NCBI GenBank assembly: GCA_012845835.1
Contig: JABAKD010000004.1
Span: 10,675,022-10,739,021, forward strand
DNA: 64,000 bases
Source: Undaria pinnatifida
Lineage: Eukaryota; Sar; Phaeophyceae; Laminariales; Alariaceae
Reading direction: 5' to 3'
The position numbers and the translations under genes were made by a program. The notes below the pieces were generated by a model. That model was not told where the DNA came from. It searched no databases and saw only the letters and a program-made list of their open reading frames with translations. Shown in pieces: positions 31,569-63,584 of the stretch (position 1 is the first letter of the stretch; every line of letters starts with the position of its first letter).

Positions 31569-31603
<35 letters not shown>

Positions 31604-42033: not shown

Positions 42034-43062
42034 GGTGCCTGGCTGCCTAGGTATTCGGCCCGCGGGTACAGCAGTATCAGGCAACACCAAACAACATGTT
42101 TGATCATACGAAGGAGTTCCACAAAAAAGTTACAACATCATTTAGAAGGGGGTAGGGGCTCACTCTTTTTAAAAGCTTCCCCCCTGCGGCGAAGAGACCG
42201 CACATGCTCTCCCGTCTCCCACCTCCCACATACGGCCACTGCAAGATCTGACAACGCAAGACAGACCCCGTGCCCGGTAAGGCAACGTCGGCGTCATCTT
42301 TGGTGGTGCGAGTGAAGTTGCCAACCGTTTTCGTGAGTCTCCGCCACCGAATCGATTGGATATTTTCGAAACCAAAAGTACATCTCTGGACTCTGTGGGT
42401 GGCCGTGGGTTGAATTTCAATTTTCGATTTTTCGCGCGCCATTGGCCGTTGCCCTTAGCACATGGCTGGACAAGCGCGTTTAGATCCAAAAGCTACCCAG
42501 CCTGCATGAGTGCACGAGCCCCTGTTCGGGGAAGCTGGCAGTTAATCCTGGGGTGATGCATGGCCCAATGTCATCCCTCGAGCTCGGCGCGTTCGTTAGA
42601 AGGAACTACAACAGCAGAAGAACCTGTTGACCTGATGCCTTGACTTCTGGTGGAGGAGGGGTTGAATATCCGTCTTTGAATTTTCGCGCCCCATTGGCAG
42701 CATCCCCTCGGCCTTTGGGCAAAAGTCTGTCACCGCGTAGATTCATAAGCTATCCAGCCTGCAAAAACGCACGAGGCTCTTACACGGGCAAAGTAAGCTC
42801 TGGGATAGTGCACGATCCTCTTTTTCAACCCTTTAGAACTTGGTGAAAATCCGCGATGCTTTCTCGATTGTTTTCTCCAGGAAGCGCGGTGTCTACTCTT
42901 CTTTTCTGCAGAAAACGCGATGTGTTCCTACTTGAAAAAATATCCTACACAAATTCCAAGTAAGTTTCCCCCAAAAACGTGGGTGATGCGGTCCTAAAGG
43001 GGATGCTAATACTCGCTGTTGTGTGTGATACTCCTGCAGATTGAACGGTTCACAACCACACG
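42034..43062. promoter_or_regulatory. Shared divergent promoter interval of the DUF1415 and SYCP2-like genes
   Basis: These 1029 bp separate two start codons on opposite strands. Two diverged direct copies of a segment of about 160 bp (42411-42571 and 42661-42820) each contain TTTTCGCGCnCCATTGG, a CCAAT box read from the minus strand, and a CAGCCTGCA element about 60-70 bp later. A bidirectional promoter is inference from geometry and the duplicated CCAAT motif; no transcription start can be fixed from sequence alone. Confidence 0.5.
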
Positions 43063-46000
43063 ATGAGCTTTCCGAGCCTTTCTGCTGAAGATATGGCCAA
43101 ACTGGTTACAGCCTGCGAGGGAGATCAGGACACTCTGGCAACCATCGAAGCTTTCTGCTCTTCCAAGACTGACGTGGAAGTACGCGAGGTGAGAATGCGC
43201 TACCATGTTCTCGCGAAATCGATCGCAGTTTAGCAATCGGCCACGTTAGGCTAAAGTGATCATCCCTATGTACGTTTACCAAACGGCAGTTTTTTGTGTC
43301 CATGTGCCCATGATGCAGTCCATCTACACGTAGTGCAGTGCGGCGCACTTCCACGTTGTCTGTCGAAATCCATCGCAGCACAGTCAGCCACGCCGGGCTG
43401 ATGTGATTACTATAGACCCTTTCGAGACCCCTACACCGATAAAACAAGTGAGAAAGTGCGATCTTGTCATGGTTTGAGCATGCCGTACGCGATAGAGAGT
43501 GCGTGCAACGCGCACATGCGACAACAGCTTGCATTGGAATCAAGCACTACGAGCTTCACCCCCTATGACCTAGCAGCCCGCGTTGCATCTTGTGAGTGAC
43601 ACTGCAATCGTACTTGTGTTCCCTCCTAACCTCCAAGCGGGTTAATAGGGCTACAGAATATGATGAACATCAGTTTTGGCCAAGCGTTTTGAGGTATCAA
43701 CTGCATCGTTTGGTGGCACCCGTGGGCGCAGTGGCTTTCATGCCCTCCAACCCATCTGCGCATGGCGCCGTGCCGCGCACGCGCACATTCTCGCGAGATC
43801 CACTCGCAGCATCAGTCGGCCGCGCTGAACTAATGCGACCGCCATGCTAGAGGTATCGTCAACAGCAGCTTTTATCATCGACGAAAGTTGAGGCCTCCAA
43901 GACATCGTTGGGTGACCCCATGGTACTCACCACCCGTGCGACTTCGCTTTCATAGCCTGCGAGGGAGATCATGACACCGTGGCAACTGTCGAGTGTTTCT
44001 TATGTTCCAAGACGACGCGGGACTACGCGACGTCCGGTGGGAGTACGTGCGGTGCGGCGCACCCCCACGTTATGTCGAAATATCCCGCAGCTGTTGGCTG
44101 CGCTGGATTCCCGTAGATCCACAAACCAAACAGCAGATTTACGAGTACTCGAGTACTCACTCACTAAGTCAAAAGTTGATATATCACAAATATCGTTCGG
44201 TGCCCACGGGTGGCCCTATCACATCAGTCGGTCGTGTGCGCTTTTGCTTTGATGGCCTCCACTCCATCTGCACATGGCGCGGATGAGATCGCCCTCGGCG
44301 TCACTGGTGCAGTGACATTACAGTCAGAACGAACTCCATAACGGCGCAGTCGACCGCGCTGTACTGATGCTATTACTAGAGCAATACTAGAAACAGCAGT
44401 GTTTAGTCTTCAAAGCAAGTTGAGATCTCAAAAGAAGATCGTATACAGCGTAACCACCGAGCTATACAGTCAGTGGTTGCGCTGTATCTTTAGCCGAAAC
44501 TCGATCCGGGATCTCTCTGACGGTTAAGCCTGCACCTCGGGTCTACTCAAGGGGCCAAGGCTGCGGTAGCGGGGGTACCGCTTTTGTTCGCTACCGGGTC
44601 TGAGCCACTCACACGAGTGCCTCTGTACGTCACGGACAAAATATGTTAGGCGATTTTCTTGGCGCAGCGAAGCTAACGATTCCATTCAGATCCACATCGC
44701 GAAAAAAAAAAAAAAAACGAAATCTAAGACCGCAAAAAGAAAAGGAAGATCACTCGCGCCAGCGACCCCGAACCATTGAAAAAAAAACCCGAAAAGTGTC
44801 CCCCCAACCGTAGCCTCGGGCGTGGGTTGCAATACCTTTAGTCAGCGCTGCCCCGAACAGGCGAGGTTATGGCGCGTATCCTAACCTAGAGGTGTGCACT
44901 ATGACGTTCAGGTATCTACTTGCGTATTTTTTACCGAACAAGAAAAATGAGACATATGGACGTCGGGGGTATCTGGACCCGGTGTTGCGCTTTAGGGTAT
45001 CGTTTGGTTTCCACTGGTGACTCTAAGGTATCTATCAGCGGTGTGCGGTTTCGTTGTTGTAGCCTCGTACCAATCTGCACATGTCACGGATCAGAATTGC
45101 TCGCGATGGAACCGATACGGTATCGCTAACGCCTGAACAAGACGCAGGTTATTACCCATCACCAGCTTCCACGAGACTGCCCTGTGAAGTCGAAGGCGGT
45201 AATCATCCGTGGCGTTCACGTGAAGGCGACAGACATAACCAAATAGCCAACATTATGCGCATGTGTTTTTCATCCCGTGGCATTGTCATGGCACTGCCAT
45301 GTGCCACTCTACGCGCCACGACAATGTCATGTTACTGACACAAGCCACACGTGCACCGCCATGGCACACCAAAAGACACATTTGTCATAGGCATAATGTT
45401 AGGGTTTAGGGGCAGGAACAGGAGTGCCATCGCACGGCAACGGCAGTCCCATGGCAACGTCAAGAGACGATTTCATGGTCATACGAAGAAAAAATTCATG
45501 GCCATGGCAACGTGTGCCATGAAAACCCATGGTAATGCCACGAATATCCGTTGAACTTCCACGGAAGCCCACGAAAGTTCGCGAAAACCCATGAGCGCCC
45601 ATAGAGTGTCATGGGATTCCATGAAATAACATAACCCTAATGGCATCGCTCGTGAAACTGGCGTTGGTTTGCTATGGCACAGGCGATAGCAGACGCATGC
45701 TACGGCAGAGGTGCGACATTTTTTTGTGAGGTTCCTCAATTTGGGAGCTTAAGATCTCTCCCAAAAACTGATTTCGAGAAAAATAAAGCTGCTACACCGG
45801 GTGAAAATTTCCATGGCCTGGGTACACAACGAGAATCCTGCAAAAAAGTGGTCTCTTTCCGGCGATTTTAGGTTAAGGAGGGTTAAGGAGCGCGCCGTCA
45901 TTCAAAAAGCTACCTCTATCGTAGCACGGGTCATTAATATATATACATATGGTACATGGTACATGGTACGGCAGAGGTGCGCCATTTTTCTCTCTGGGGC

Positions 46001-49000
46001 TCCTAACTTGGCGAGCTACACACCACATCCAAAAGAATGGGCTCGAGAAAATTAGTAGTGTAACCCCGTTAGAGCCCCAAAAGTCCCCCTATACTAACAT
46101 GAAGTAAACTTGTAAAAAAAAAAAAGCGTGTCAAGTTGTAAAGGCATTAACTCGACGAACAAACCCACATAGCCTACAAGTTATACACGAAAACAAAAAA
46201 ATGGTGCGAAACAAGAAGGGCGTTCAGATGGGTTTGGGCTAATAGGTTGAGGAGCCCCGTCATTCAGAAAATATTTTTTTATCCCAAAACGTTGTTCTAC
46301 CACTGTCGTAGCACCCGCGAATGCTGCCACAGGGGTTGGCAGTGCCTGATCTTTCTGTGGCTCCTCGTATGAGGAACTCCTCCACGTCACCCATCGACTG
46401 ACTTGGAGAAACTTAACAGTACACCCCGATCAACAACCCGAAAGTATGAGGAACTCCTCCACTTTCTCTCTTCTTTGCACACTTTTACTTTCCAGCTTCT
46501 GAACAAGCCGTGGTCACAGGTGTCATCCCTTCTCCTCCCCGGTTCTTGCCTTCAATTTTTATCGCGCATAGGGTTCAGCAATCCCACTGCTCGTCGATTG
46601 TTCATCGAGTGTTGCTAACTCACGCTCTCGCGCTTTCCGCAAGTCGATTTATCCACAAGAAAAAGTCTCAGCGAATTTATACGAGTATGCACTCGGTGGG
46701 GCTCGAACTCACGAAACTGACCTATACCAGGCTCGAGGATAACCTGATACGCCACCGGGGCGACCGGTCACCCATCGACTGACTCGGAGAAAATTAAGAG
46801 TACACCCCGATCAACAACCCGAAGGCTTAGAGGGTTAAAACGTGAAAACCTCATGAGAGCTTCGAACGATGTTGTTTATGTTCCCCGAAGTAAGGATCCT
46901 CGCCAGTCAGAAACAAATCCGTTAAAATATCCCACCCTTGTCTTAAAGCACGTCGTTGCTGCTGCTGTTGCTGCTGATTGAAGGTGGTATAGGACCGCCT
47001 AGTTCACGCCAAAGGCACGGCCATTTTCAGAACCGGTCTAGCCCGGACGATGTGCGAGCTGAATCTGAACACGTCGTTACTGTTACTGCTGCTGCCGACT
47101 GCAGGTGGTAGAGGGCCGCCTAGTTCACGCCGCGGGCACGGCCGTCTTCGCAACCGGTCTGGCCCGGACGATATGCAAGCTGCGCAGTCTCGGTGGCAAG
47201 GTCGGCTCGCACAAGACAGGCCGGGTTCTGCGGGCTCTAGGGCTGTGCGTGACCAAGGCCTTGCAGACCGGCAAGTGAAAATAACAGACCAAATAATCGA
47301 TAGAAGGGGACGGGGAGAGGGGTACAATCATTCATTGCCAGGCCGAGGCGATGGTATTGTAGTAATGGACCCCAGTTTTTATTCCAAAGCAGAGAGACAA
47401 GAAATTCCGTAGCGGTGAATTTCTCGAAATGACAAAGTACGCCTATTATTGTTTTGACCGAAATTCCACTTCATTTGTGCCCTAAAACGTGTTTATTTAG
47501 TTGATCAAGGGGTCAAGACACGCTTTACGTAAGGTCTACAGTCACCGCCGCGAGTGGCCCTTAGCAGCCGCTGCAAATGAACGGCAATCAAACTTGTCCC
47601 CCTGCCAAATCTGCGTTGTCGTTAGGCGTAGCGTAGCCTGTCAGAACGTGGACTCTCGCATCCCCACGACAGCACGGCGTTGGGGGGAGTCAATCATTGC
47701 CATGCATAGCCGTAGTATTTCAGACCAAACGACCCTCGCATCCATGCAAATACCAGAACTGAGCACGTCGGGTTTTTCATCGACCAGACAGACATTGCTT
47801 GCATCAGGCGCGCACGAAGGAGGGGGTGTACTCATTCGTGGTCTGCATTAGTCATTTGACGATTGGCCACGCACATTCCGTGCGAGGCGGAGCACCGCTC
47901 CTCCTCCTAGTAGAGACACCTCCAAAGTTGGGGGTCACTTTTGAGAGCTCGTGCGACTGGCTACCATATTTAGTCGCAGCCATAGGGTTATTCGGTTTGG
48001 CGATATGTATGTACGGCCGTCATGGAATTGTTTTTTACACTGGACAAAAAAAAGCACGTCTCAGTTAACCTTTGAGCAAGTCATACTCGGTACTTAAAAC
48101 GGGGGTGCCCCTTCCTAACGCAGCTCGAGCTTTCGAAAAAACTACTGTGCTTCCCTCGCCTCCTCAACCTCAGACCTAGCGGAACTGAGGATTTTGGCTC
48201 TGCACCGTGGTCTCCGGCAACCTGCGCTGCTTCTGTCTCTGGCGGAAGTAGTGCCGGACAACAGCGTGGGCTCGGACGCGCAACGAGCATCGGCTTCCGC
48301 CCTTGTTGCCTTTTGTGACGTGAGTTGGTGGAAGACGCGTGCCACGACAGGTATCGGTTTTTGGACAGAATACTTCGGAGCGACGCGGCTTCACTAGTGC
48401 AGACTACCGAACCGTACCCGAGATGTTTAGCACGGGCTATGTCCGCGGTGCACTACTTTTTTTTTCTGAGAGTCCTCACTCGAGAATCTCTGTTCCCCAC
48501 CCAAAACATTAATTTAGAGAAAACTGAAAATTCTACCCAGATAAAATGAACAATCCCATGGGCTAAGCATAAGATGAAAATCATCGCAAAATAACAAGAA
48601 TAATTTTAGGCGATTTTGGGGTTACAAGGAGCCCCCGTCATTCAGAATAAAACTTCTGAAATGTGCTGCCTCTGTCGTAGCGTGCGTCCCCATGTGTGTT
48701 TCATAGTTTTCTCGGTATTGATTTTTGTATCTGGGGCGTGGGACTGTGTGTATCGTGATACCCATCGATAGTTTTTCATAGTCTGCTTATGGGCCAGGAA
48801 TAGAGTTTTTTTTTACGTAGGGAACCTCAGAGAAATTCGGGAGCGCCCATACCATGCTAAATTATTTAGCAGCAAGCGTCATTATATCCACCCTTGACGC
48901 CTGCCACAGTGCAGGTAGTACGTTTTTTGCCAAACTTTTTCTCGATAACGACCCAGGATACGGTAGGCGGGGGTCACTTTCGGGGGAGGTTTTGGCAGTG

Positions 49001-52000
49001 GCTTGGTGGGGGTCAATCGCGCGAGTGACCTCCTTGTTCCTTTGTGGCCTTAAGATTTTGTGTTGTAACATTGAAATTGTGCGACGAGAATCCGCAACGG
49101 AAAGGTAAGCTATGCTGCGCTCGAAGACCCATGCTACGATAGAGGTGCACCACTTTTTTTCTGAAGGTTCCTCAAATTGGGAGCTTAAGACCTCTCCGAA
49201 AGGCTGATTTGGAAAAAAATAAAACAGCTACCGGATGAATTATCCCGTGGCTTGGGTACACAACAAGAATAATGCCAAAAAAAAGGGAATATTTCCGACG
49301 ATTTTGAGTTAAGGAGCGCCGTCATTCAAAACAAGAGTGCTATCGTAGCGTGTGTCCAAAAAAAGCACACAAAGTATCTTTGCCCGTGAGATACAGAGTC
49401 ACTCGTGCGAAAATGGGGGTATGATACTACAATACCGCGGCCTGGGTCTAACGGAGTTCCTCCACTGGGGAGTTACCCAGTACCATTGGATTAACGTGTT
49501 CCTCGATACCAGTTGTTATATAGCTAGGCCGTGGGCTTGTGGACCTGGCTAAATGTTACGTTCAGTCTCAAAATTCGGTGGTTGCGTGGCGTGTAGAGAT
49601 TCTCTGGTGACGAGCGTCAGAAACCTATGCGGCTAGCCCTACCGCAGCACGCGTCCCGGTCTTTTTCCGCTTGCGACGTGAGTTGAAAGCCGTGCTACGG
49701 TAGGGTATGCACGTCGGAGCCCAAACATTTCTCGCTGGCGGGGGAGCTCCTCAACTGATCACTTACCCAAAATCTATGGACATGATGTGCATTTTTTCAC
49801 TATGACCGAGGCTATCATACGGTATAATTCGTATTTGCACATTAATGTTTGCTCCTAGTTTTCGCAAGCGAGTTTAGGCCACTCTCAGACTCGTGCTAGG
49901 ATAGAGGTGGCGCGTTTCGGCTAACGCACTTTCATTTTGATCCAAGTCAGTTTCTGGGTGGGGCATGTAGTAGTTTACCTAGCGAGGGTCCTCGGATAAC
50001 AGGAGGTGCGCCTCTGCCGTAGCCTGTGTCTGTTGCGTCTTACGACGTGAGCCGATTCAAGTCCTGTTGTGCCTCTCTTAGTTGAAGAATCGGCAACGAC
50101 ACTGGGTGCACTGGATATCGCTAGACGGATAGAACAGTTTATTGTGACACATGCATACTTCGCCGGAGAGCAACCATGATATCCCTTTACTGACCGCACC
50201 TGCATTAACACCAGTCCAACACGGCGAAAACAGGGGAAAATGCTGTTGGTAATAATAGGAGGGCGCCGCTTGACCGCTCGAATGGATGCCTTCTACGACA
50301 GAGGTTTGCACCGTTTTTTTCTGAAAGATATAGGGCTCCTTAACCCAAAATCGTCCGAATTTCGTTAGTGTGTAGCAGTGTGTTTGCCGTTTGCCTAGGA
50401 CATGGTAAAGTTCATCGGGTTCAAGTTGCATGTTAATCTAGATATTGTTTTGCGTGAGTTACAGAGGAGTTTATCAAATAAGAAGCCCCTAAGAAACAAA
50501 CAGGTGCACCTTTGCCGAAGCATGTGTCTCAAATAAGGACAACACAGGGAAACAACGTGCTACTGGTGATAATGGCACGACTAGACCCCTTAAATGGTCG
50601 TCCCCGCATAAAAACCTTTGTATGTAAGATTAAGCACACGCTTAGTGTAGCAGGAGACCTCCTTTTAACCCCTTGGGTGACCACCCCCTTACATTTGAAC
50701 CAGTGCACCAAGGCCAAACAGGAAAATGCGTTAGGGGGATCGCGGTTTGACTTACGGCGGTTGTCTCGCACTCTTCCATGGTTTGGAAACATTAAGATCT
50801 AAACCAGTTTGGCGTGCTTGCTTCGTCGACAGAGGTCGCCAACGCTGTGGAAAGAGCTTGCCAAGCTGATTCGAGGTGAAGCGAGACTGCTCAAGGGATT
50901 CTTGGGGCAGGCCTCAGCCCTGGCCTCAATCACTGATCACCGCACTCAGGAGATCGCTTTTGAGGCCGTTTACCGAATGTGGAAGGTAACCTGTAGGGCT
51001 CTGCAGCGCCTTTGCTTGCGTAGAAGAGGACGGAGACTCATGACTAAGAGAGGATTAAATACATTATGTTATAGGGCTATTCCTTCAGATTCCTAACAAT
51101 AGTCATTGATTGGTTGTCCAGGTGTTATTCTAGGTATGGTATTGTAGATATTACTCAGTAATTGTCTAGGTGTTACATTAGGTAGCATCATACCACTCTA
51201 CAATCAGTTGCATTATACGAAAATACTTTGTAGTTTGTTGCGCACGACAGTTTCCGGGGTCTACGTCTGTGCATTTGGCTGGGGCCTATGTGGCTGGGCG
51301 GGGGGTGCTTATTGGTGTTGGCTTTCTGGGAAGCGATTTCGCTGGGCGTTTACTCCGCCATCCATGTATAATAGTTGCTAACCGCTAACCGTCGAGCCCA
51401 ACCAACTCACAGCCGTAACCTTGAAGGGATCAATCGCAGTTGAGACTCGATCTTAGGCTTATGGAATGCACGCCTTGCTGGTTGGGTGGCCATTCCTGGT
51501 TGCGATCGAACACCTAATGTCCATCTTACCCTTGGGTTAATTTGCGCACTCATTCCGCCTTCGGGCGCTGTCAAGGCAATAGGCAGCATAGTTACCTGTG
51601 AGTACCTAGTGCGTGGGCAAAACGATCAAGTATCGGCCTACTGCAAATAGAAAGGCACTCTTGCGTTGCTTCCCCCTCCGAGAGCACACCCCGTTTGGTA
51701 CACAAAAGGGTTTGTAATGAGGTGGACAATTGAGTAAGTTTGATTTTAATAACCGGTTTAGGGTCTTTTGGCGATCGTTGCGGTGTGCTAGTTGGATGTG
51801 CGAACGTCGCGTGTTCTGCCACGTTGGTGTTACCTGCTGGGACTAATCGATAGGTTTGGAAGAAGCAGCCGGGCGGCCCTCCGGCTTTGCCATCGGTAAC
51901 TCCTAAGGAAATCAAGGAAGGACTCTCTGGCATCTCTACCACCGATTTTGAGAGTCAGGTCCGGTCGATGCTTGCCACCATCAACGTTGGTGACCGTGAC

Positions 52001-55000
52001 AGCGATGATGACGGCTACGGTGGACCCCCATCTTCGTTCCCAGTGGAAACGGTGTACCAGGTGGGGAATTGTGGTGAAAGGGCTTAATTTTCCGTATCGT
52101 AGAGTAAAACGGAGGACGAAGGCTACGGTGGGGGGGGGTACCCCATCTTGCATTACCGGGTTTGAGCCACACGGAAAAGTGACCCTATACCTCACTGAAA
52201 AAATACTGTAGACGATGTTTTAGGTGCGGCGCAGGTTACCATCCCATTGCGGGTTCTTATCGCTACACTAAAAAAAACATGAAAGCTTCTATACCGCTAA
52301 CAAACAACAGGGTTCACTCGCGTGAGTGACCCTGAGCCACTGTAAAAGAAGACCCCAAAAGTGGCCTCCCTATTGCTGCCTTGGTCAAGGACGAGCTCTA
52401 TGCCCCATAAAAAAAAGTCACCCAAAAAACGAAAAGTGAGAAAGATAAGAACCGTGCGCGCAATGGGATGACCAATCCCGTTGGCCGCGCAGATGACACA
52501 TAACATGCTACGGTGACGGCACATCACTTGTTTTCTAAGGCTCCTGACTAGATGAGCTCTATTCCCTGATATTCCTCCATCCAATCCATCCAGCACCCTA
52601 TTTTGGGTAAAGTGAAAGTGTTTTTGTGATGAATAAACCCAGGACCTACAGTAGTAGGTATCGTGAAAAATAGAAACATTGCTAAACAAGAATGATTTAT
52701 TTTATTATTCCGACGAGCTTGGGCTCAGGAGCCCCGTCAGTCAGAAAATAGCATATATTACCTACTTTTATCGTAGCGTGTTTCAGATGCCAAACAATCT
52801 TGTAGAGCATGGACGGGGTTGCGAAGGTGTTTATACTAATGGTTCCCTTCAGTATTGCACCGTTGTTGTTGGCACAGACTGCGTGGGATCGTTTAACGGT
52901 TCTGTGTGCACATTCATGTGTGCTCCAAGCCTCGCCGAAACACGACTTTGAGAGCGAAACGAAAGTGCAACCAGAAGAACAATCCCATGGCCTAGGTATT
53001 CAACGAATATAAAATGTTGTTTTCAGCCACCACTGATGGTTCAACGATACCGGGCACTTCCGTACTAGATAGTTGAAAAACCATGTCAGTCGGAAGCCGT
53101 ATGTCCCAAAACTGCCACCCCTATATATCACGCGTGGTCTCTGTGTGCGTGTGTGTCCGTGTGTGCGTGTGTATGCGCGTGTGCTTGTGTGTGTTATGTG
53201 TGTTTATGTGTATGCCGTGTGTGCGTGTGTATATGTGTGCGTGTGTACATATGTACGTGTGTACATGTGTGCTTGTGAGCATGTGTGCGTGCGTGCGTGA
53301 GCGCGTATGTCGTGCTGGTGTGTTTTGTCGTCCTAAACGATGCAATTAGCCCCTTTTCAAGCTGAAGCACTTTAGGGCCCGAGCGTATCCTTTCTACCGG
53401 GGCATAGCTCGACTGCCGTCTGCGACTGTTTTGTTTTGCAGGTTACTGACTGGACGGGGCTAGGCTGCGAACAACGTCTGGGTCATGTCAAGTGGCTTGA
53501 TGTGGGCGGTGACTCGATCAGCATTCAGGTGAGAAAAACAACGGCCTCCTGTCGACGAACGGCCCACCCATAAGCGGAGACACCCTCCCCAGAGCCCTCG
53601 CAGTAACGCAGACAAGAGTAGAACCCACATAGTGGGAGAATGTGAGCTGTACAAGGAGGAATTGATTGTGTCAGAAGAGATTATAAACCACAGAAGGGTG
53701 TGAAATGCAGAAGTTTAGTAGATTATATAGTGCCGAGAAAGCGATCGCTATCCTAGGAGACAGATGGTAACCACAGGTGGGCAAAGAGGAAGTAGATAAG
53801 ACAACAACAAATCTCTTAATGTATTATGTGAAATAAACGTACTTAGCGCCCGAACATTGGAAGATCTCTATAAGGATTGCGAGCGGTGCTCCGTCTCGAA
53901 AGGGACGCGTGGTCAATGGTCAACTGACTAAGGCAAATGCAATAAATGAGTACGCCCCTCGCTGTCGACCCATGCGAAGACAGGGGTTGCACATTTGGGC
54001 GAAAGTGGATGTGGTTGACCGGACTCTTACATATTACAAAAATAAAAATACACTCCAGCTGCGAGATCGAAGATTTTGTCGACACTCACCTTTGCAAGCT
54101 GTGTGTGATACTCCGACCGCGAGTATTACTCGGTGTGTGTTCTCGTTAAGGATATAGGTCGGCGACTCCCCTTGAGACTACAGTGTAGCTTGTACCAGGG
54201 TCAACAGGATGATGTTAGTCAGTGTGTGTGCGGAAACTATAAAACCCGTTTTTGAGGGAAACAAAAATTGACAGCTGTGGAAGGAAATTTACGGCCTTGT
54301 TTTTGTTTTTCACTGGCGCATAGAAAGGTTGGTCGGGGTTGCGCGAGCGAAGGTCTTCGAAGCCATGTTTATTAGGGTTGGATGTTGACCTCCTCATGTT
54401 AGGAGCTCAGAAAATGCTTAGAACCTGCTGCGCACCCCTAGCGCGGGATGTCCATCTTGCTATAGGTTTTGTTGTACGCCTAGGACCTGGGATTGTTCTT
54501 CCGGGACTCGTAGAAATTTTTATTTTTCCGAGTCAGTTGTTGGGTGGGACATAGGAACCTCATAAAATGCTTGGTGCACCTCTACCGAGGCATGGGCCCG
54601 AGGAGCCTCAGGAAATAGTGACTACTGCCTACAGTACCAACATGGATACGCTTGTCGAGGCATGCTGTGGTAGGAGGCCCCAGCGGGAAAATCGTCCCTT
54701 GCTTTCGAGCCAACCTGCGGTAAAGGGGCCAAACGGGAACCATCTCCCTCGATGTTGACTCGCATTGTGATAAAGGGACTAAGTGAGCAAATCTCTTGCT
54801 GTCGAGTCATGCCGCAGAGGCCTCCTACTGTTGCTGTCGAGTCAACCTACAGCAGGGGGTCTTGAAACTTTGTATCAGTGTGCGCCTGACCAAATACAAA
54901 GTACCCTGGCTTTCGATTTCACTATTTTTTTTCTGTTTGGCTGGTGCACGACTTGCTTCAGATACGATGATATGTGCGTGTGCCCTTTTTATTTTCGTTT

Positions 55001-58000
55001 TGGTGAGTTCATTTTTTTTCCTGGCGTATTCTTCCACTGAAGAGTTCTGGGGCATGTTCTGTGACCACGGACTTGATTAGGTGTTTTCTTATGAGAACAA
55101 CAACAACAACAGAGGGGCCAATCCAGCATATCCTCTCTCACCGTCGAGCCATGCTACGGTAGGGGGTCGAAGCTAGGACATCCTGCCGCGCTATCATATC
55201 AAGTCATGCTACGGCAACGGCCCCAAGCGGGGGATCCATTCCTTAGAGGTCGAAGCAGGGAACCAAAGTGGGCTCCCCCCTTTGCTGTCGACTCCTGCTG
55301 CCGTAGGGGGCCCGAGCGGGGGACACCTTCCCTCGCAGTGGAGTCACGCCGCAAACGGGGGCCCAAGCGGGGACCTCCCCCCCCCCCGCCTTCGAGTCAT
55401 GCAAGCTACGGTAGGAGACCCGAGCTCTTCCTCTCCTCTCTCGTTTTCGAAGCTGTCATCCGATATGCAAGAAAGTACGCACAAGGTGCGGAAATCCGCC
55501 TCAAAAGTGTTTCTTAGTAGGATTCAGCCCACCCTTCATGCTCGCGACTCGCCGAGCACCTCATCGCGCTTCGGGTTTGGTGCACGCGATGTCTGCCTGG
55601 TCGGTTAAAACCGGGCTTGCTCTGTCCAGGAATTTTTAGGGTGCGAGGGTCAATGGTCGTAAGACTACGTACGGCTATGAACGAAATGGGTACATGCCTC
55701 GCTGTCGAGTCATGCTACGGTATGGGGCCCAAGCCGAGCTCCTCTCCGCCGCTGTAAAGCCATGCATCGGTAGGGGCGCAGAGTGGGGGGGGCTTCCCTC
55801 GCTGTCGGGTTATACCGAGGTAGAGGTTCCAAACAAGGGCGTGTTATCTCGCTATCTCTGTCGAGTTAGGCTACGGTGGGGGGGCTAACGGAACCCCCTC
55901 CTCCCTGACGGGTCATGCTACGGTAGGGGGGGGAAGCGGTATTTCTTGGGCTCTTGATGAGTTTGGAACTATATACCTGATCCAAACCCCAACGGTGAGA
56001 AAAATTGTGCTTGTGGCTTGACTGTTGCAAAGCCTCACGTAGCAGTGGCGAGGGTGGGTATTTACTAACTGCGGTCCCGATTGCTATGAAGTTAAAAAAT
56101 TACTTCGTACACCGGTATGGTACAGGCGATAATGGAATATATTGAGCGGTGCCTCAGTTTACGTATGCCCCGTCAGTCCGACAGCATTCACTTTGAACTC
56201 ACCCCCTTTACCGTGGCGTGGGGTGCATGCTACGGTAGAGGTGCGCCTACTTATGCCGAGACTACTTATGTGTTTTTACCTCTGAACCTAATCCAAAATA
56301 TATAGAAGGACGGTACGCGCTACTCCATGAACAATTCCATATGCTACAACAGTAGGTCCATAAAACGATTGTTATTCTAAAGCACAAACGATACTCCAGC
56401 GGGGTCGGACACATCCTACGGTAGAGATTCTCGCCGCTTTTTTTCTGAAGCCACTCGTTTGAGGAGGAGCTCCAGATGTATCTCACCCAGAATCTGTTTT
56501 TGAGCTATCATAACTGAATGTGCAACCCGTTGGACAAACCAATGGCCTTGGTGAAAACAAGACTATATTTTAACAAAGCATTACTGATATTCCGACGACT
56601 GATTCTACGATAGACCTCGCAAAAACCAGTGATTTTCTTTAACGAACGTTTCATGGCTCCTCGACACGAGGAAGGATTAAATGAAAACCAAAATGTTCGT
56701 ACGTCTTCTTGCTTGCAATAGACTATCGAACGATGACGTCGGGGGGGCAAGGGGCACCGTATTTCAGGAGATACGGCCGGGAGCTGGTTTCAAAACCGGC
56801 GATTTTGGTCAAGAAATGTTGGGGGGGCTACCGTAGAAACCCCCTCCATCAAAAAACGTTTTGGGCAAAAAGTGCTTCCTCTATACCTCTATCGTAGCGC
56901 GCGCCAATAGTCCACTTGAACGGCCGGTGATCACTCCGGTGGGAGGAAGAAGCATGCCACGATAGAGATGCACCCTCTATTTCTGGGCCTTCTCAGTCAA
57001 GGGACTCTATGCCCAATCCACCAGCTGGGTGGGACAAAAAACAAATTTACTACCCGAAAAACTCCATGTTCTAGGCATATACCACAAGACATTTCGCAAA
57101 ACAACAATGAAAACCCGACGGTTTGGGATTAAGGAGCCCCGTCTTTCGGAGACGTTTTGGCCAAAAAGCGCTACCTTTTATCGTATCACGCATCCTTGAG
57201 ACTCGTGCTACGGTAGGGGTTAGGGTTATTTTTACTAATACTACTCCTCACTTGAGTAAGTCGGTACCCCACAGAAGAAACGAGGACACTGAACGTGCAA
57301 CCCGATAATGAAAAACCGGGCCTAAGCAAACAAAACAAATATATATATATATATATATGTGAAACAAGATTGACGTCCCGACGATTTTGGGTTAAGGAGC
57401 CCGGCCGTTCAAAAACGAAAAATGAAAAAAGTGCTACCTCTATCGTAGCATTGAATCAGAACCAGTTGAGCAGCCCCATCAGTCAGAAATGTTTTGGCCA
57501 CAAAGTGCGACCCCTGTATCGTTAACATGCGTTGAACATGCCGCTCTGTCACGCCACGGGAGAATATATTGATACGAACGAACACCATTTTAAGTGCTAC
57601 CCGTACATATGATGAACATGCGGTATTTCTCTCTGTCACGCATCCGGGATAATATAGGTACGAACAAATACCCTTATTAATACCTTCGTCCGTCGCATTG
57701 AAGCACAAATATCCTGTGCAGGTGGTACCTCCTGAACGGCTGGGCCGAAACGTCGATAGGGTTTCCCCAACCCAGGGTACACGGTTGTAACGTTTACTCT
57801 CGTCCGCAATCAATCACAGGTATACTCCAAGAGCTCATGGGAGGAAGACGGAGAGCTTTCTCCAGGCATGTTTGTCAGCATCCCTGCTAGTGTTGTCGCC
57901 GCATCCAGCAAGATCATGGTTGGCACGAGATCAATGCAATTAGACGTCCCCTTTCTTCAGGTGAGAATTTCGTTTTCGTAAAATGCCCCAGATCTACCGT

Positions 58001-61000
58001 TGTTCAGCTGAAGCGAGTTTTTAATTTGCGATCGCGCCAGAAAAACAGGAACTATTTTCCACACCCATCCGCACGCCTGGTTTCTCCATGTCCTGTCCGA
58101 CCACCTGATTTCACCGACAAAAGAAACAACAGAAAACGAACAGGTGTAACTACTGAGACAGCAGCGCAGCAGCATGTACCAGCAGAGTTGGCTTGGGTCG
58201 GGTTGGGTTAAGTTGGCAACAGTTCCAAATATCCACCAGCACTAGTACCTAGGGAGACGTACAGTGCCTGACCAGGCCTCTGATACCTGTGGTATGTGCG
58301 AGTGGAATGGTAGCGAGGCCAGGTTGCCTCATATGTGCGATGAGTCCCACATCCTTTTAAGGTCGCATGCAACGGTTGCGGGTGCTATTTATCTAAGGTT
58401 TGCCACGGGAGGAACTATATACCCTACCCAAAGACGGATTGATCTTGAGAAAAAAACGGAAGTGCAACCCGATTACAATCTCATCATCTTGACGTACAAT
58501 AAGAAATACCACCGTAAACATGTTGTCCCCCATAAAACCGTGTGTCGTTTCCGTGCACCAAATTGCCCTGATGTATACACTGGGGTGATATATTCTGAAA
58601 GAACAACAGCGCGAAACGAATACCATTCACTAATGCTCTGAGCATTAGCTAATGGTCCCCCATGAAACCGGGTTGTATCCTTTCCGTGCACCAAATCGCC
58701 CCGATGTACGCACTGGGGTGATACATTCAGAAAGAACAACAGCGCGAAACGAATACCATTCGCTAATGCTCGGAGCATTAGCTAATAGTATTCCTCCGGT
58801 GCTGTCGTTGCTTCTGAACGTATCACACCAGGGTTGCATCAGGGCCATTTCGTGCACGGAAACGATTAAGTAATAGCTAATGGTATTATTTTCATGCTTT
58901 CGTTGTTTTTCGACGTGTCACACCAGGGACTGAATCAGAGCGATTTAGTGCACGGAAACGACTCAGCCCGTTTTCAGAATGAAATATTTTAAGCCACTTC
59001 AGTTACATCAACATTAACACCACCAAATACTTGATCTCCATCTTTCTTTCGGTCTAACACCATTCGTGCAGTAGCTCCTATTATGTATCCATCAAGCTGT
59101 CTAAACTTACTACCCCCCCCCCCGCCCCCCCTGGGCACACCCCCCCCTCCCACCAATCACCACAAGGTAATGCACCCACAAGGCGGTTACGTTGTACTCC
59201 CATTGCTGTCTCTGGAAGTGGTCATACCGGAAGTTAAACTAACTCATTGAAACTGTCATCCATATGCAAGTCCGTAAGTCCGTCTTACGAGCAGTTCTTG
59301 GAAGGATGCAGCCCACCCTTCATGCAACTCGTCGACCACCTCACGACGCGTGGCGCTTGGTGCAAGCAATGTCTGCCCGATCGGTGAAAACCCGGTGTGC
59401 TCCGTCCTGGCGTTGTAGGGATGCGAGGGTCTAATAGCTATGGTCATACGACTACAGCCATGCATAAATATCGAGCACCCCCCCCTCCCCGCCCATAACC
59501 AGTATTAAGATAATATCTAGAAGCTGGTGCGCTCCACGGCCTTCAGATTATGCCCCCCTCTAAACGGGCTGTATAGATTCCGTGCGCAGATTGATTGAAA
59601 GGCTTGACGTATTTGTATCACCCTGTTGACCCTGGTACGACTAAGGGGAGTCACCGACCTGTATCCTTCATGACGACGTACACAATACGTAATACAAGCT
59701 CGATCGGAGTGTCACACACAGGTTGCAAATATTACTTTAAACGAAATCCTCGATGTCACAGATCTGTGACATGTTTTGTAAATTTGAAAAAAAAACAATT
59801 GCGCCTCCCTCGCTCCCTATACATGTGGTATATGTTTCGTCTCTCAGATGAGCTCGGCGGTGTTCGCATTGAGCCTGAACCGCCAATGAAAAGTCTTTGT
59901 GTGGCAATTACCAAAGCTTATTTCCAGCGAAATCGAGTTTCTGATTCAAACGCGCCCCAAGAGCAAGGGCCCGTTTGAAGCTCGAATATACGGCCATGGT
60001 TCTACGACTGTCGACCGAGATCTGCGATTTTCATTACATTCTCCAGCCGGCGCACATAAATTGATGGCAGTTACAAGCATCCTGCTGCACGGGTGCCTAA
60101 CGAGAGGCCAAGGTTCATGTAGGGGGATTATTATGTTGTTTTGTGGGGGCTTGTTTTGGAGTGGCTTGGGGCCACTCGCGCGAGCGACCCCCCTCTTTCT
60201 TTTGAGTCGTAAACTTTCGTGGCGTTATTTACAACTTTTGCTATATCAATCCGCAATTGAATGTTAAGGTGCGCCATTAGTCGTCTCATGTAGGTTGTTA
60301 TGTAAATGAGGAACAAAGCCAGAAGTTCAAGTGGCGCAAACCCGGGAGTGAAAAAAGGTGGGTCCCCCCCCTGTCTTAGCTTTGATCAAAAGCTATACTG
60401 TCTTACGACATAGCCCTCCCGTGGTTCTCCGCCTTGTTTGGTGGTAGTGTCCTGCGCTGGTGCGGGTGACCAAGAAGCCCCCGGGGAATGAAGTGAGCAA
60501 TGCGAGCTGCAAGCTCGTTTTTCGACTGCAGGGTGGTGCAAAGACGTTCAACCTATTCCGCAAGGTAAAGCAATGCTGTGCGGTAGTATCGGTCCTCCAC
60601 CAAGGTACAATAACACAGAATAGGGCACCTATTGACCATGGTGAGTGCTGTAGACAAAAATGAAGCGAGAAGTAGGCATAGAAGGGAGTTAGGATTTTGG
60701 GCATACCTGCAGTAGTAGGTTTCCTTCTGTTTCCGTGGCGTACTTCTTTCGAGAATATTGTAAGTGATGAACGTTGAATCTCATGCTGCACATTGCCGGA
60801 TGGAAAGGACAGCAATAATAGTAATAAATACTACGAGTACGCATTCCGGGCTGGCTTTTGGGGGGGGGAGGGGGTGTGCGTATAATGGCTCCTAGATCCT
60901 TGAATCGTTCCTGTAAATGTTAGCTTCTTTTCTTTTGACCCCGTTTCTTATCACAGTAGGTATTCTGCTGTACTGTACTGTCCCAGGCGAGAGTGTCCCA

Positions 61001-62890
61001 TTCCAACCAGTTGGCTGACCTTGGCTGAAAGTGCTTGTCATTGTTGACACGGTGCGGCTCTCCCGTAGCGCTGCTGAAATAGGACCTGTTGCTGGCATAG
61101 TGCCGGTGTAATCACTCGGCACGATTGGGGCCCGCTCTGCTAGTGGCGCTATCGGCACTATGCCCAACGGCGCCGGTGTTTGGTACAACCACTGCCTGTA
61201 TTGTTGGCACAGGCACATGCCGGTACTATAGGGGGACCACCGCCGCTGTAGACTGTCGCGCGCAATCAGCAGATCTATTACGCCACTTGCGGGTATACCT
61301 CTAGCATATTTCTTATTTGGAAGTAAGTGTATATGAAAAATACGCACTTGGTGTAGCGGCTCCTGACTTTCATATTTCCCCAGAATTTTCAGGTTAAGCT
61401 TGTTGTGGGCACGGTTGGGACCCGCTTTTTGCAACATACAAAGGTAGGAAAACGTATTTTTTAACGTTTGTTTTCGCCGATTTTTCGTGTGTTAGGTTGG
61501 CCTTGGATTGTAACTTTCGACGGTTTCAATACTATTCTGGTATGCTTTCCTACACAACCTACCCAACTAAAGTTGGTACATGGCAAAAACCCTACTGTCG
61601 TAGAATAAAAATGAATGGTGTTCGAACGATGCTGGGGAGTCTCCCAGGTGAAGAATATCGTCCAGTCTAACTTGGCTGGGTCAAAAAGTACCACCCCTGT
61701 CCGGGAACGCCGGAAGGCAGGAGCATCTTGTTACTCGAGACGTCGAAACTAAAACGGGCAGATAGGAAATTGATCGACCGTTCGTTTTCGTTTTCGTGCA
61801 ATACACCTGTGGTTCCTCATTATCCACCAACTTTTTGTGGCCCTGTCAAAGGAATAGTGTCGGTTGGTCTCTGTTACCCTTCGCCCCCCGCCATCGCGTG
61901 CTCACTTAGGCAATTGCGGTGCTTATATCCACGGTCGCAAAACATGGAGAGGAGCACCAGAGCTCTAGAACCATCAAGGCGAGTGTTGTGAGCTCCAACG
62001 ATGTGCCGGTGAGGGTGGTACGCACGCGATATGTTGCTCTACTCCGACCGATATGTAATTCCCACCGGTCCGAGCTACGGGGTCCCCATTTTCACTACGC
62101 GATCGGCCTTGCACCTCACTCAAACTCGAAGTTTAACATATTTTGTTGGCGAAGCGTAGCAGCCAATTTCACGGCGAGGCATATCGCGAAATTGTATCCA
62201 AAAGGCTCAAAAGCGTTAATATAGGAAAATCTCTCGCGCGAGTGGCCCCTGAGCCGCTAAAATGAAAGGCCTTCAAGTGACTAGTAGTGACTAATAGTGA
62301 CTAGTAGTAGTGGCTTGTTAAAGTGACTATTACAATCGTAACTAGTAATGGTTTCTTACAGTGACTAGTAGTGACTAATCGTGACTAGTCGTAGTGGCCT
62401 ATTAAGGTGGTTACAGTAGTAGTGACTACGGTATGTAGTGCAATACCGTACCCTTCGTCTATCGAGTACGGACAAGCTGCACCGCGATTCAAGACATTGC
62501 GCTTTTTTTTTGGTAATCGGACGCATTGACGTGCTTGTAGCCCTTCATGCCCTTGATCGTAGCAGATCCGTGATTTATGGCTTCGTGGTTGTGCGGGTCG
62601 ACAGCCAGCTACTGCCCATATTCGAACTGGGCGCCATGACCGTAGATGTCACCCCTCAACGATCGCGGATAATTGAGTATACCAGGTACTAGGTGTGTTG
62701 TAGTACATGTATCTCCACCACGACTTGGGTGCAACAGCCACTGCCAAGATGTGATGAAGGCGTTTTTACTGCGGGAGATCCCAAAACAAACGCTCAGTTG
62801 GTTTACTATGCGTCAACAAAGGACGATGTTATACCTTTTGTTCAATCATATTTGGAGCTTCCACACGCCGGACAGACCAGATCCCTATAG
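43063..62890 (+). CDS. SYCP2-like protein: helical-repeat plus Spt16M-like domain (meiotic chromosome axis candidate)
   Basis: Eleven exons, about 481 aa: 43063-43188, 47105-47270, 48174-48319, 50833-50985, 51854-52060, 53442-53528, 57820-57960, 60448-60564, 61393-61443, 61910-62008 and 62738-62890. All phases agree; Asp98 is split across a GC-AG intron (donor GCAAGT at 47271). Residues 1-255 are short amphipathic helices like ARM/HEAT repeats. Residues about 275-430 look beta-rich. Shared with vertebrate SYCP2, in order: R-T-Q-E-I-A-F-E, then F-E-S-Q-V-R-S-M-L-A-T-I-N near S-F-P, then K-W-L-D-V-G-G-D-S-I-S with S-W-E-E-D about 15 residues on and I-P-A-S-V-V after it. SYCP2 organises the synaptonemal complex axis in meiotic nuclei. 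The gene model is strong; the family assignment is from remembered motif order and needs a profile or structure search. The last exon is uncertain (see 63297-63584). Confidence 0.78.
43207..44390. repeat. Spaced copies of a module of about 60 bp in SYCP2-like intron 1
   Basis: A degenerate block (TCTCGCGAAATC, GATCGCAG, CAGTCGGCCACGCTG, CTAATGTGAT) recurs near 43207-43262, 43360-43412, 43793-43842, 44075-44110 and 44330-44375, separated by related sequence. Interspersed with it is the exon 1 copy at 43953-44030. Confidence 0.6.
43953..44030 (+). pseudogene. Decayed copy of SYCP2-like exon 1 3' part
   Basis: AGCCTGCGAGGGAGATCA and the next 60 bp match 43110-43185, reading A-C-E-G-D-H-D-T-V-A-T-V-E-C-F in place of A-C-E-G-D-Q-D-T-L-A-T-I-E-A-F. 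The donor is not preserved. Confidence 0.8.
45690..45935. mobile_element. MITE-like element (terminal inverted repeat GTGCTACGATAGAGGT-type)
   Basis: Left end GACGCATGCTACGGCAGAGGT. The right end reads as its inverted partner, CTACCTCTATCGTAGCACGGGTC. Internal landmarks in order are GGTTCCTCAATTTGGGAGCT, CTGATTTCGAGAAAAATAA, CCATGGCCTGGGTACACAAC, CGGCGATTTTAGGTTAAGGAG and CCGTCATTCA. No frame spans it. It shows close similarity to 49120-49356. It lies in SYCP2-like intron 1. Confidence 0.72.
46500..46766 (-). mobile_element. tRNA-derived SINE-like element, copy B
   Basis: On the minus strand the head contains TGGCGTATCAGG (A-box-like) and GTTCGAGCCC (B-box-like) about 45 bp apart, with CGGTGG/CCACCG complementarity around them. 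The body (CTTTTTCTTGTGGAT, GCGGAAAGCGCGAGAGCGTG, GATAAAAATTGAAGGCAAG) and the CCTGTGACCACGGCTTG end match copy A at 9880-10130. Boundaries are approximate. Confidence 0.6.
46949..47190 (+). repeat. Tandem duplication of 121 bp that contains SYCP2-like exon 2 acceptor and 5' end
   Basis: Unit 1 (46949-47069) copies the CTG-rich polypyrimidine region and the exon start at 47105. In unit 1 the frame is broken by TAG two codons in (GTG-GTA-TAG) and the acceptor reads AAG, not CAG. Unit 2 holds the functional exon edge. Confidence 0.85.
47826..47900 (+). repeat. Dispersed repeat of about 70 bp (TAGTCATTTGAC family)
   Basis: GTACTCATT, TTAGTCATTTGACGATTGGCCACGC and CGGAGCACCGCTC match 23153-23216 on the same strand and 53880-53960 inverted. 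Confidence 0.65.
48420..48692. mobile_element. MITE-like element, diverged copy
   Basis: It shares TTTTTTTCTGAGAGTCCTC, CCATGGGCTAAG, GGCGATTTTGGGGTTA, GGAGCCCCCGTCATTCAGAA and the right end TGCTGCCTCTGTCGTAGCGTGCGTCC. The left inverted repeat is eroded. SYCP2-like intron 3. Confidence 0.55.
49120..49356. mobile_element. MITE-like element, well-preserved copy
   Basis: Left end GACCCATGCTACGATAGAGG, right end GTGCTATCGTAGCGTGTGTCC. The internal order matches 45690-45935, including GGTTCCTCAAATTGGGAGCT and GGCTTGGGTACACAACAAGA. Confidence 0.72.
52503..52792. mobile_element. MITE-like element, copy in SYCP2-like intron 5
   Basis: Left end CATGCTACGGTGACGGCACA, right end CCTACTTTTATCGTAGCGTG, with GGAGCCCCGTCAGTCAGAAA before the right end as in other members. 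Confidence 0.6.
53130..53310 (+). repeat. TG-rich microsatellite
   Basis: An imperfect GTGTGTGCGTGT run of about 180 bp lies in SYCP2-like intron 5. Confidence 0.9.
54036..54290 (+). repeat. Dispersed repeat of about 250 bp, copy 2
   Basis: Near-identical in order to 13907-14160, about 85-90 percent by eye. The partial inverted third copy is at about 59590-59745. Confidence 0.78.
54640..55935 (+). repeat. Clustered GTCGAGTCATGCTACGGTAGGGGCCC-like units
   Basis: At least ten spaced units near 54655, 54810, 55143, 55205, 55290, 55345, 55397, 55702, 55750 and 55912. Each is built from TCGAGTCATGC, TACGGTAGG, GGCCCAAGCGGG and CTCGCTGTCG. They share the CTACGGTAG word with the MITE ends but lack their interior. 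Confidence 0.65.
55445..55690 (+). repeat. Dispersed direct repeat of about 230 bp, copy 1
   Basis: GAAnCTGTCATCC, GCAGCCCACCCTTCATGC, GATGTCTGCC, GTCGGTnAAAACC and GCGAGGGTC recur in the same order at 59244-59475. Confidence 0.7.
56950..57192. mobile_element. MITE-like element, copy in SYCP2-like intron 6
   Basis: Left end GCATGCCACGATAGAGATGC, right end CGCTACCTTTTATCGTATCACGC, with GGTTTGGGATTAAGGAGCCCC and CGTCTTTCGGA inside. Another copy follows at about 57205-57450. Confidence 0.6.
58530..58975. repeat. Foldback structure: two direct and two inverted units of about 125 bp
   Basis: Units at about 58533-58650 and 58655-58775 run TTTCCGTGCACCAAATnGCC, GTGATAnATTC, GAAAGAACAACAGCGCGAA, and TAATGCTCnGAGCATTAGCT. 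From about 58795 to 58975 the order is inverted twice (GTCGTTGCTTCTGAACGTATC, then AATCAGAGCGATTTAGTGCACGG). A long hairpin is possible. SYCP2-like intron 7. Confidence 0.78.
59244..59475 (+). repeat. Dispersed direct repeat of about 230 bp, copy 2
   Basis: Second copy of the sequence at 55445-55690; see that entry. Confidence 0.7.
59590..59745 (-). repeat. Dispersed repeat of about 250 bp, partial inverted copy 3
   Basis: On the minus strand: AGGATACAGGTCGGTGACTC, CCAGGGTCAACAGGGTGAT and GTGTGTGACACTCCGATCG match the family at 13907-14160 and 54036-54290. Confidence 0.65.
62276..62425. repeat. GTGACTAGTA microsatellite-like tract
   Basis: About 150 bp of permuted TAGTGACTA, AGTAGTGGC and TTAnGGTG units, in SYCP2-like intron 10. 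Confidence 0.75.
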
Positions 62891-63296: not shown

Positions 63297-63584
63297 GCCG
63301 AAGCCACCGGTAACCAGTGCTTTTCAGACATCGCACAATCACCCCTACCTAGCAACTCGTCAACAGCGCGTGATACACAGCCAACGCCACATATTGAGAC
63401 AACCTCTATAATACACAAACAAAATGACGCTTGTCAGGGTCACCCCAGCGGGAAAGACCGCCGCCAGCCAAACAAGCAGCTTTCACCAGCGATCGTGCGT
63501 GGCATTCATGGGAACGAGGCGAAGCGTGCTCGGCGGCCGGAAGAAACCCCGACGAAAGCGACCGAACCACAGGCGAGAACGTGA
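63297..63584 (+). CDS. Possible alternative 3'-terminal exon of the SYCP2-like gene, or separate ORF
   Basis: A strong acceptor (CCGCCTCCGTTTGCAG) at 63281-63296 opens a 95-codon frame in phase 0 ending at TGA. It is Ser/Thr/Gln-rich and turns basic near the end (E-A-K-R-A-R-R-P), a plausible nuclear localisation signal. A disordered basic tail would suit an SYCP2-like protein. No convincing donor was found in the exon at 62738-62890, so this could join directly after 62008 as an alternative to that exon. It could also start its own short gene (ATG at 63258). Confidence 0.4.
   Translation, partial: AEATGNQCFSDIAQSPLPSNSSTARDTQPTPHIETTSIIHKQNDACQGHPSGKDRRQPNKQLSPAIVRGIHGNEAKRARRPEETPTKATEPQART

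What the first reader, a model, noticed from the sequence alone, without database searches (positions are those of the whole stretch)
43063..62890. SYCP2-like meiotic axis protein candidate in an ochrophyte alga
Eleven phase-consistent exons give a helical-repeat domain followed by a beta-rich domain. The conserved blocks run in the same order as the ARM-like and Spt16M-like domains of vertebrate SYCP2 (T-Q-E-I-A-F-E; F-E-S-Q-V-R-S; W-L-D-V-G-G-D-S-I-S then S-W-E-E and I-P). Meiotic axis components are poorly described outside animals, fungi and plants. A clear stramenopile member would support an ancient origin of this architecture.
Basis: partly seen in the sequence, partly recalled or inferred. 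Interest (0 to 1): 0.8.

Follow-up and report, generated by a model that had tools for sequence, protein, structure and literature searches.

The report
Kelp RED1/SYCP2 meiotic axis gene

Summary
A real split gene is there. Its ATG at 43063 is right. The spliced ARM-PH part aligns with brown-algal proteins (Pylaiella 51%, Ectocarpus fasciculatus 45%), among them an Ectocarpus protein (P0008) that is very probably ecRED1, characterised in 2025 as the Red1/SYCP2 orthologue (PMC12678776). No second locus was found in the genome, which also holds HORMA (HOP1-type) exons. Direct evidence for SYCP2 homology is modest: no Pfam match; HHalign probability under 1% though above all shuffles; significant only over the last ARM helices and linker, not the PH part; low-confidence armadillo-then-strands model. 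Verdict: family right, novelty claim wrong, exon list partly wrong. One possibly new point: the published HOP1-binding closure motif C(S/G)LA is not recognisable in this kelp gene model.

The parts
43063..43188 (+). exon 1, start codon, first ARM helices
   Evidence: ORF, donor GTGAGA; not hit by tblastn, but the spliced model aligns from its residue 6 to P0006 residue 3 and from residue 10 to P0011 residue 8
47105..47270 (+). exon 2 (ARM), inferred GC donor CCG|GCAAGT
   Evidence: tblastn P0007 E 0.008, P0002 E 0.04; GC donor makes the KALQT-D join equal in length to P0006 KALES-D
48174..48319 (+). exon 3 (ARM)
   Evidence: tblastn P0007 6e-11
50833..50985 (+). exon 4 (ARM; TQEIAFE block)
   Evidence: tblastn P0008 7e-16
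51854..52060 (+). exon 5 (end of ARM, linker; FESQVRS block)
   Evidence: tblastn P0006 7e-18
53442..53528 (+). exon 6 (start of PH-like part; WLDVGGDSIS block)
   Evidence: tblastn P0008 1e-7, P0009 4e-15
57820..57960 (+). exon 7 (PH-like strands)
   Evidence: tblastn P0009 6e-17, P0008 9e-6
60448..60564 (+). exon 8 (last PH-like strand), absent from the Undpi1 model P0009
   Evidence: tblastn P0006 1e-7, P0010 3e-6
61910..62008 (+). exon 9 (C-terminal PH-like helix, start of disordered part)
   Evidence: identical to P0009, 2e-13; FRK|AI join as in P0006
63438..63580 (+). exon 10 (disordered, basic); later exons lie outside the window
   Evidence: identical to P0009, 2e-24; sites read
43954..44033 (+). 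degenerate copy of part of exon 1 in intron 1
   Evidence: 80% identity over 81 columns with a 1-base gap
46949..47182 (+). 121-base tandem duplication covering the acceptor and first part of exon 2
   Evidence: TRF, blastn 83% over 113 bases

Best explanation
The locus is the kelp (Undaria or a very near relative) orthologue of brown-algal RED1, the Red1/SYCP2/ASY3-type core of the meiotic chromosome axis. Shown here: one gene with in-phase exons, orthologues in other brown algae that match it exon by exon, and a helical-repeat N-terminus. Taken from the published Ectocarpus work: ARM, PH and coiled-coil domains, sporophyte (meiotic) expression, and binding of the HOP1 HORMA domain through a short closure motif. 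Inferred: that the kelp protein assembles through its C-terminal region on meiotic chromosomes and recruits HOP1 to control double-strand breaks.
For: Spliced model vs P0006 51% over 415 columns, P0011 45% over 493, P0007 46% over 433, P0008 53% over 327. C-terminal exons 76664-80867 match the C-terminal region of P0006/P0008/P0010, where ecRED1 has its coiled coil. Five relatives (P0006, P0007, P0008, P0010, P0011; three of them Ectocarpus) carry C(S/G)LA, the published ecRED1 motif core. P0009, an Undpi1 model, is 99% identical over 32% of the query. 10 of 12 genome matches of P0006 lie at this locus, the other two at E 0.26 and 0.71. HORMA-family exons elsewhere in the genome; joined, their only PDB match at E 1 or better is HORMAD1, E 8.7e-4, over residues 4-45. 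ARM-end similarity to SYCP2 5IWZ: 0 of 60 shuffles reach it, 0 of 100 by local HHalign.
Against: No Pfam SYCP2 match; PF18581 not found in the genome, though its controls also gave none. Profile searches of PDB sequences gave no SYCP2. HHalign to 5IWZ: probability 0.8%, E 0.07, and 0.4%, E 0.14; reversed SYCP2 16.1 and the best of 40 shuffles 19.9 against 20.7; global mode gave nonsense paths. PH part not above shuffles (28 of 60 local, 60 of 60 semi-global), last ARM plus PH local score reached by 4 of 60. AlphaFold mean pLDDT 41 and 49, and SYCP2 is not among the fold rows shown. C(S/G)LA was not found in the kelp model. That P0008 is Ec-22_001630 is inferred, not checked by identifier.
Confidence: 0.92

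Rival explanations
1. A brown-algal ARM/HEAT-repeat protein that is not a meiotic axis component; the SYCP2 resemblance is generic armadillo similarity.
For: Fold matches are generic ARM/HEAT proteins such as APC, beta-catenin and importin beta; no Pfam SYCP2 match; PH sequence similarity not significant.
Against: Orthology to the Ectocarpus protein that shows the published layout and C(S/G)LA motif; similarity to SYCP2 extends into the linker after the repeats.
Confidence: 0.05
2. A decayed or non-functional copy of RED1.
For: Degenerate duplicates of parts of exon 1 and exon 2 sit in the introns; the closure motif is not recognisable.
Against: All ten window exons are open with splice sites, and the model is about 50% identical to relatives; no other copy found in the assembly.
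Confidence: 0.03

Closest known systems
Ectocarpus ecRED1 (Ec-22_001630; PMC12678776), very probably P0008 Esi_0084_0095
   Same: Same order of parts: helical N-terminus, PH-like part, long acidic disordered part, conserved C-terminal region; 53% identity over 327 columns of the ARM-PH part, C-terminal exons matched
   Different: Published closure motif core C(S/G)LA reads VRGIHG (aligned to P0011) or KASVV (aligned to P0006) in the kelp model
SYCP2 (PDB 5IWZ)
   Same: Colinear similarity from the last ARM helices to the DFE/EFE linker
   Different: Below Pfam and PDB sequence-search thresholds; PH part not significant; SWEE match not conserved in brown algae
Yeast Red1 and plant ASY3
   Same: Same published family
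   Different: Not compared by sequence here

Membership tests
brown-algal RED1 | orthology with the Ectocarpus protein over its parts | tested here: met
   no second locus (the tool scores only the best candidates)
brown-algal RED1 | conserved C-terminal region (published coiled coil) | tested here: met
   exons 76664-80867, outside the window, align to P0006/P0008/P0010 C-termini; coil formation not computed; the only PDB match of profile A4 is occludin, E 0.043, over this region
brown-algal RED1 | closure motif CM-R-A core C(S/G)LA (published as common in brown algae; not a defining feature of the wider family) | tested here: inconclusive
   present in 5 relatives; not found in the kelp exons at the aligned place, nor as a further exon in introns 9 and 10, but no transcript to settle the exon model; the paper itself notes absences from poor annotation or lack of conservation
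SYCP2/Red1/ASY3 family | N-terminal ARM repeats | tested here: met
SYCP2/Red1/ASY3 family | PH (Spt16M-like) domain after the ARM repeats | tested here: inconclusive
   six strands, two short helices and a closing helix in order, pLDDT under 60; fold rows barely cover that part; sequence vs 5IWZ PH reached by 28 of 60 shuffles; PH published for ecRED1
SYCP2/Red1/ASY3 family | similarity over last ARM repeats and linker | tested here: met
   0 of 60 shuffles; segment chosen; 0 of 100; but HHalign probability under 1% and 4 of 60 shuffles for the wider segment
SYCP2/Red1/ASY3 family | meiosis-specific expression and axis localisation | not testable with these tools
   no RNA or microscopy data

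The most novel reading that the evidence does not exclude
Kelp RED1 has lost the C(S/G)LA closure motif that recruits HOP1 in Ectocarpus, so kelps either use another motif in RED1 or load HOP1 mainly through its own DNA-binding domain: a lineage switch in how the meiotic axis is built.
Probability: 0.25. Interest if true: 0.4.

Novelty: new member of a known kind. Interest (0 to 1): 0.22.

Why it matters
It gives a corrected gene model for a meiotic axis protein in a kelp: the matching Undpi1 model P0009 starts in exon 5, skips exon 8 and stops before the C-terminal exons. The possible change of the HOP1-binding motif in kelps is a small, directly testable question.

Tried and rejected
Rejected: a missing exon between exons 1 and 2 (P0006 and P0007 join directly). 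Rejected: exon 2 donor GTGAAA with exon 3 starting at GATTTTGG; the GC donor gives the join whose length matches the relatives. Tried without result: Pfam and PDB sequence searches (no hit; one unrelated hit each). Foldseek gave no match at E 0.001 or better for either model, and SYCP2 was not among the 50 rows shown in each fold search, which excludes nothing. Global HHalign gave nonsense paths, one of them scoring above 98 of 100 shuffles; the semi-global path for last ARM plus PH (0 of 60) is likewise a misplaced pairing and is not counted for the reading. A missing closure-motif exon in introns 9 or 10: three small open candidates, none with the motif. A CSVAT at about 64479 in intron 10 is out of order relative to relatives and was set aside. 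Papers: PMC12678776 outline with abstract, sections 7 and 11, and passages; PMC8131943 passages only; the others only as search listings. A search for Undaria pinnatifida, meiotic and RED1 together found no paper.

Full report
The window lies in a 511 Mb, 68-contig genome at C48:10675022-10739021. A gene model named jgi/Undpi1 by its source is 99% identical over 32% of the 340-residue query; that Undpi1 stands for the kelp Undaria pinnatifida is recalled, so the species is an inference.

Exons. A first rough concatenation of clear exons found five proteins, two of them named (Hapterophycus, Sphacelaria). A longer query found P0006 Pylaiella 1291 residues, P0007 1207, P0008 Ectocarpus siliculosus 1203, P0009 Undpi1 570 and P0010 Ectocarpus 1061. 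A profile search gave 14 proteins, adding P0011 from Ectocarpus fasciculatus and short pieces; those with an organism name are all brown algal, five have none. tblastn of P0006-P0010 on the window plus 39 kb downstream gives a colinear + strand exon chain from 47087 to 80867; exon 1 was not hit by tblastn but aligns once spliced. In the window there are ten exons: 43063-43188, 47105-47270, 48174-48319, 50833-50985, 51854-52060, 53442-53528, 57820-57960, 60448-60564, 61910-62008, 63438-63580. All donors are GT except exon 2, which needs GC (CCG|GCAAGT); that choice restores the same length between KAL and LHRGLRQ as in P0006. The spliced product, mainly its ARM-PH part, aligns with P0006 at 51%, P0011 45%, P0007 46%, P0008 53%.

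The start is right. The interval to 62890 stops mid-gene: its final piece matches no relative, exon 10 follows at 63438, and about ten further exons follow outside the window, including the conserved C-terminal region at 76664-80867. SWEE occurs in the kelp but not in P0001, P0006, P0007, P0008, P0010, P0011 or P0014, so it carries no weight.

What it is. Kane et al. 2025 (PMC12678776; sections 7 and 11 read) describe ecRED1 of Ectocarpus: ARM, PH and C-terminal coiled coil (residues 1075-1291), sporophyte expression, and a closure motif with C(S/G)LA that binds the ecHOP1 HORMA domain. P0008 has the same layout and carries KRPRAVCGLAGS, so it is very probably that protein, though I did not verify the identifier; its N-terminus is truncated relative to P0011. 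The main text of that paper does not mention Undaria, Saccharina or Laminariales. Tromer et al. 2021 (PMC8131943; passages) had already reported the family in all eukaryotic supergroups and traced it to a single SYCP2-type gene in the last common ancestor. The finding is therefore a further member of a known family.

Independent tests of the SYCP2 link were modest. No Pfam SYCP2 family appears in hmmscan of the rough model (up to E 1), of the model, P0001 and P0002 (up to E 10) or of P0006-P0010 (up to E 10). Against SYCP2 from PDB 5IWZ, HHalign with the family profile aligns ITDHRTQE...DFESQVRSMLATIN with DVGDYELQ...EFETDCRIFLNLVN. The score is 20.7, with a probability of only 0.8% and E 0.07; 40 shuffles reach at most 19.9 and reversed SYCP2 16.1. 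With A3 the probability is 0.4%, E 0.14. On the sub-region the local score is 21.0 and 0 of 100 shuffles reach it; global mode gives a meaningless path. A profile alignment of the ARM-end and linker segment gives z 5 to 8, 0 of 60 shuffles; its limits were chosen. The wider last-ARM+PH local score is reached by 4 of 60 shuffles, and the PH part alone by 28 of 60 (local) and 60 of 60 (semi-global).

Context. P0006 finds 12 matches in the genome: 10 at this locus and two insignificant (only the best candidates are scored). HORMA-family exons lie at C36:487017-490689 and, joined, resemble HORMAD1 (E 8.7e-4), so the expected partner is probably present.

Mechanism, with its basis. Axis assembly by the coiled coil and HOP1 recruitment by closure motifs are established for the family and published for Ectocarpus; for the kelp they are inferred. 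One point does not carry over: where five relatives (three of them Ectocarpus) have C(S/G)LA, the kelp model has VRGIHG (aligned to P0011) or KASVV (aligned to P0006), both alignments scoring 57; the alignments to P0007 and P0008 score 30 and 41. No missed exon with the motif was found in introns 9 and 10. This may be a real kelp difference or an exon-model error.

Noticed in passing
43954-44033 +: Degenerate, frameshifted partial copy of exon 1 inside intron 1 (80% identity, 1-base gap).
   Followed up: partly
46949-47182: 121-base tandem duplication that includes the acceptor and first part of exon 2; only the second copy continues into the full exon.
   Followed up: partly
47270-47277: GC-AG intron (donor GCAAGT) inferred at exon 2.
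   Followed up: yes
P0009 versus window: The Undpi1 gene model lacks exons 1-4, part of exon 5, exon 8 and the C-terminal exons; it seems to read through a donor after exon 75436-75724.
   Followed up: yes
41401-42129 -: Reverse-strand ORF containing MSSTLWTIALLAAFIAPSSHGFVAPPPP, which looks like a signal peptide followed by a plastid-targeting type motif (recalled); a possible divergent neighbour gene.
   Followed up: no
L003:8433-8804: Met/His-rich ORF (MDHSSMSMDNDTSSMSMDHDHGDHT) resembling a copper transporter N-terminus (recalled), downstream of the gene.
   Followed up: no
31286-31911 and 14199-14612: Long CAACAC-type low-complexity array and G-rich tracts.
   Followed up: no
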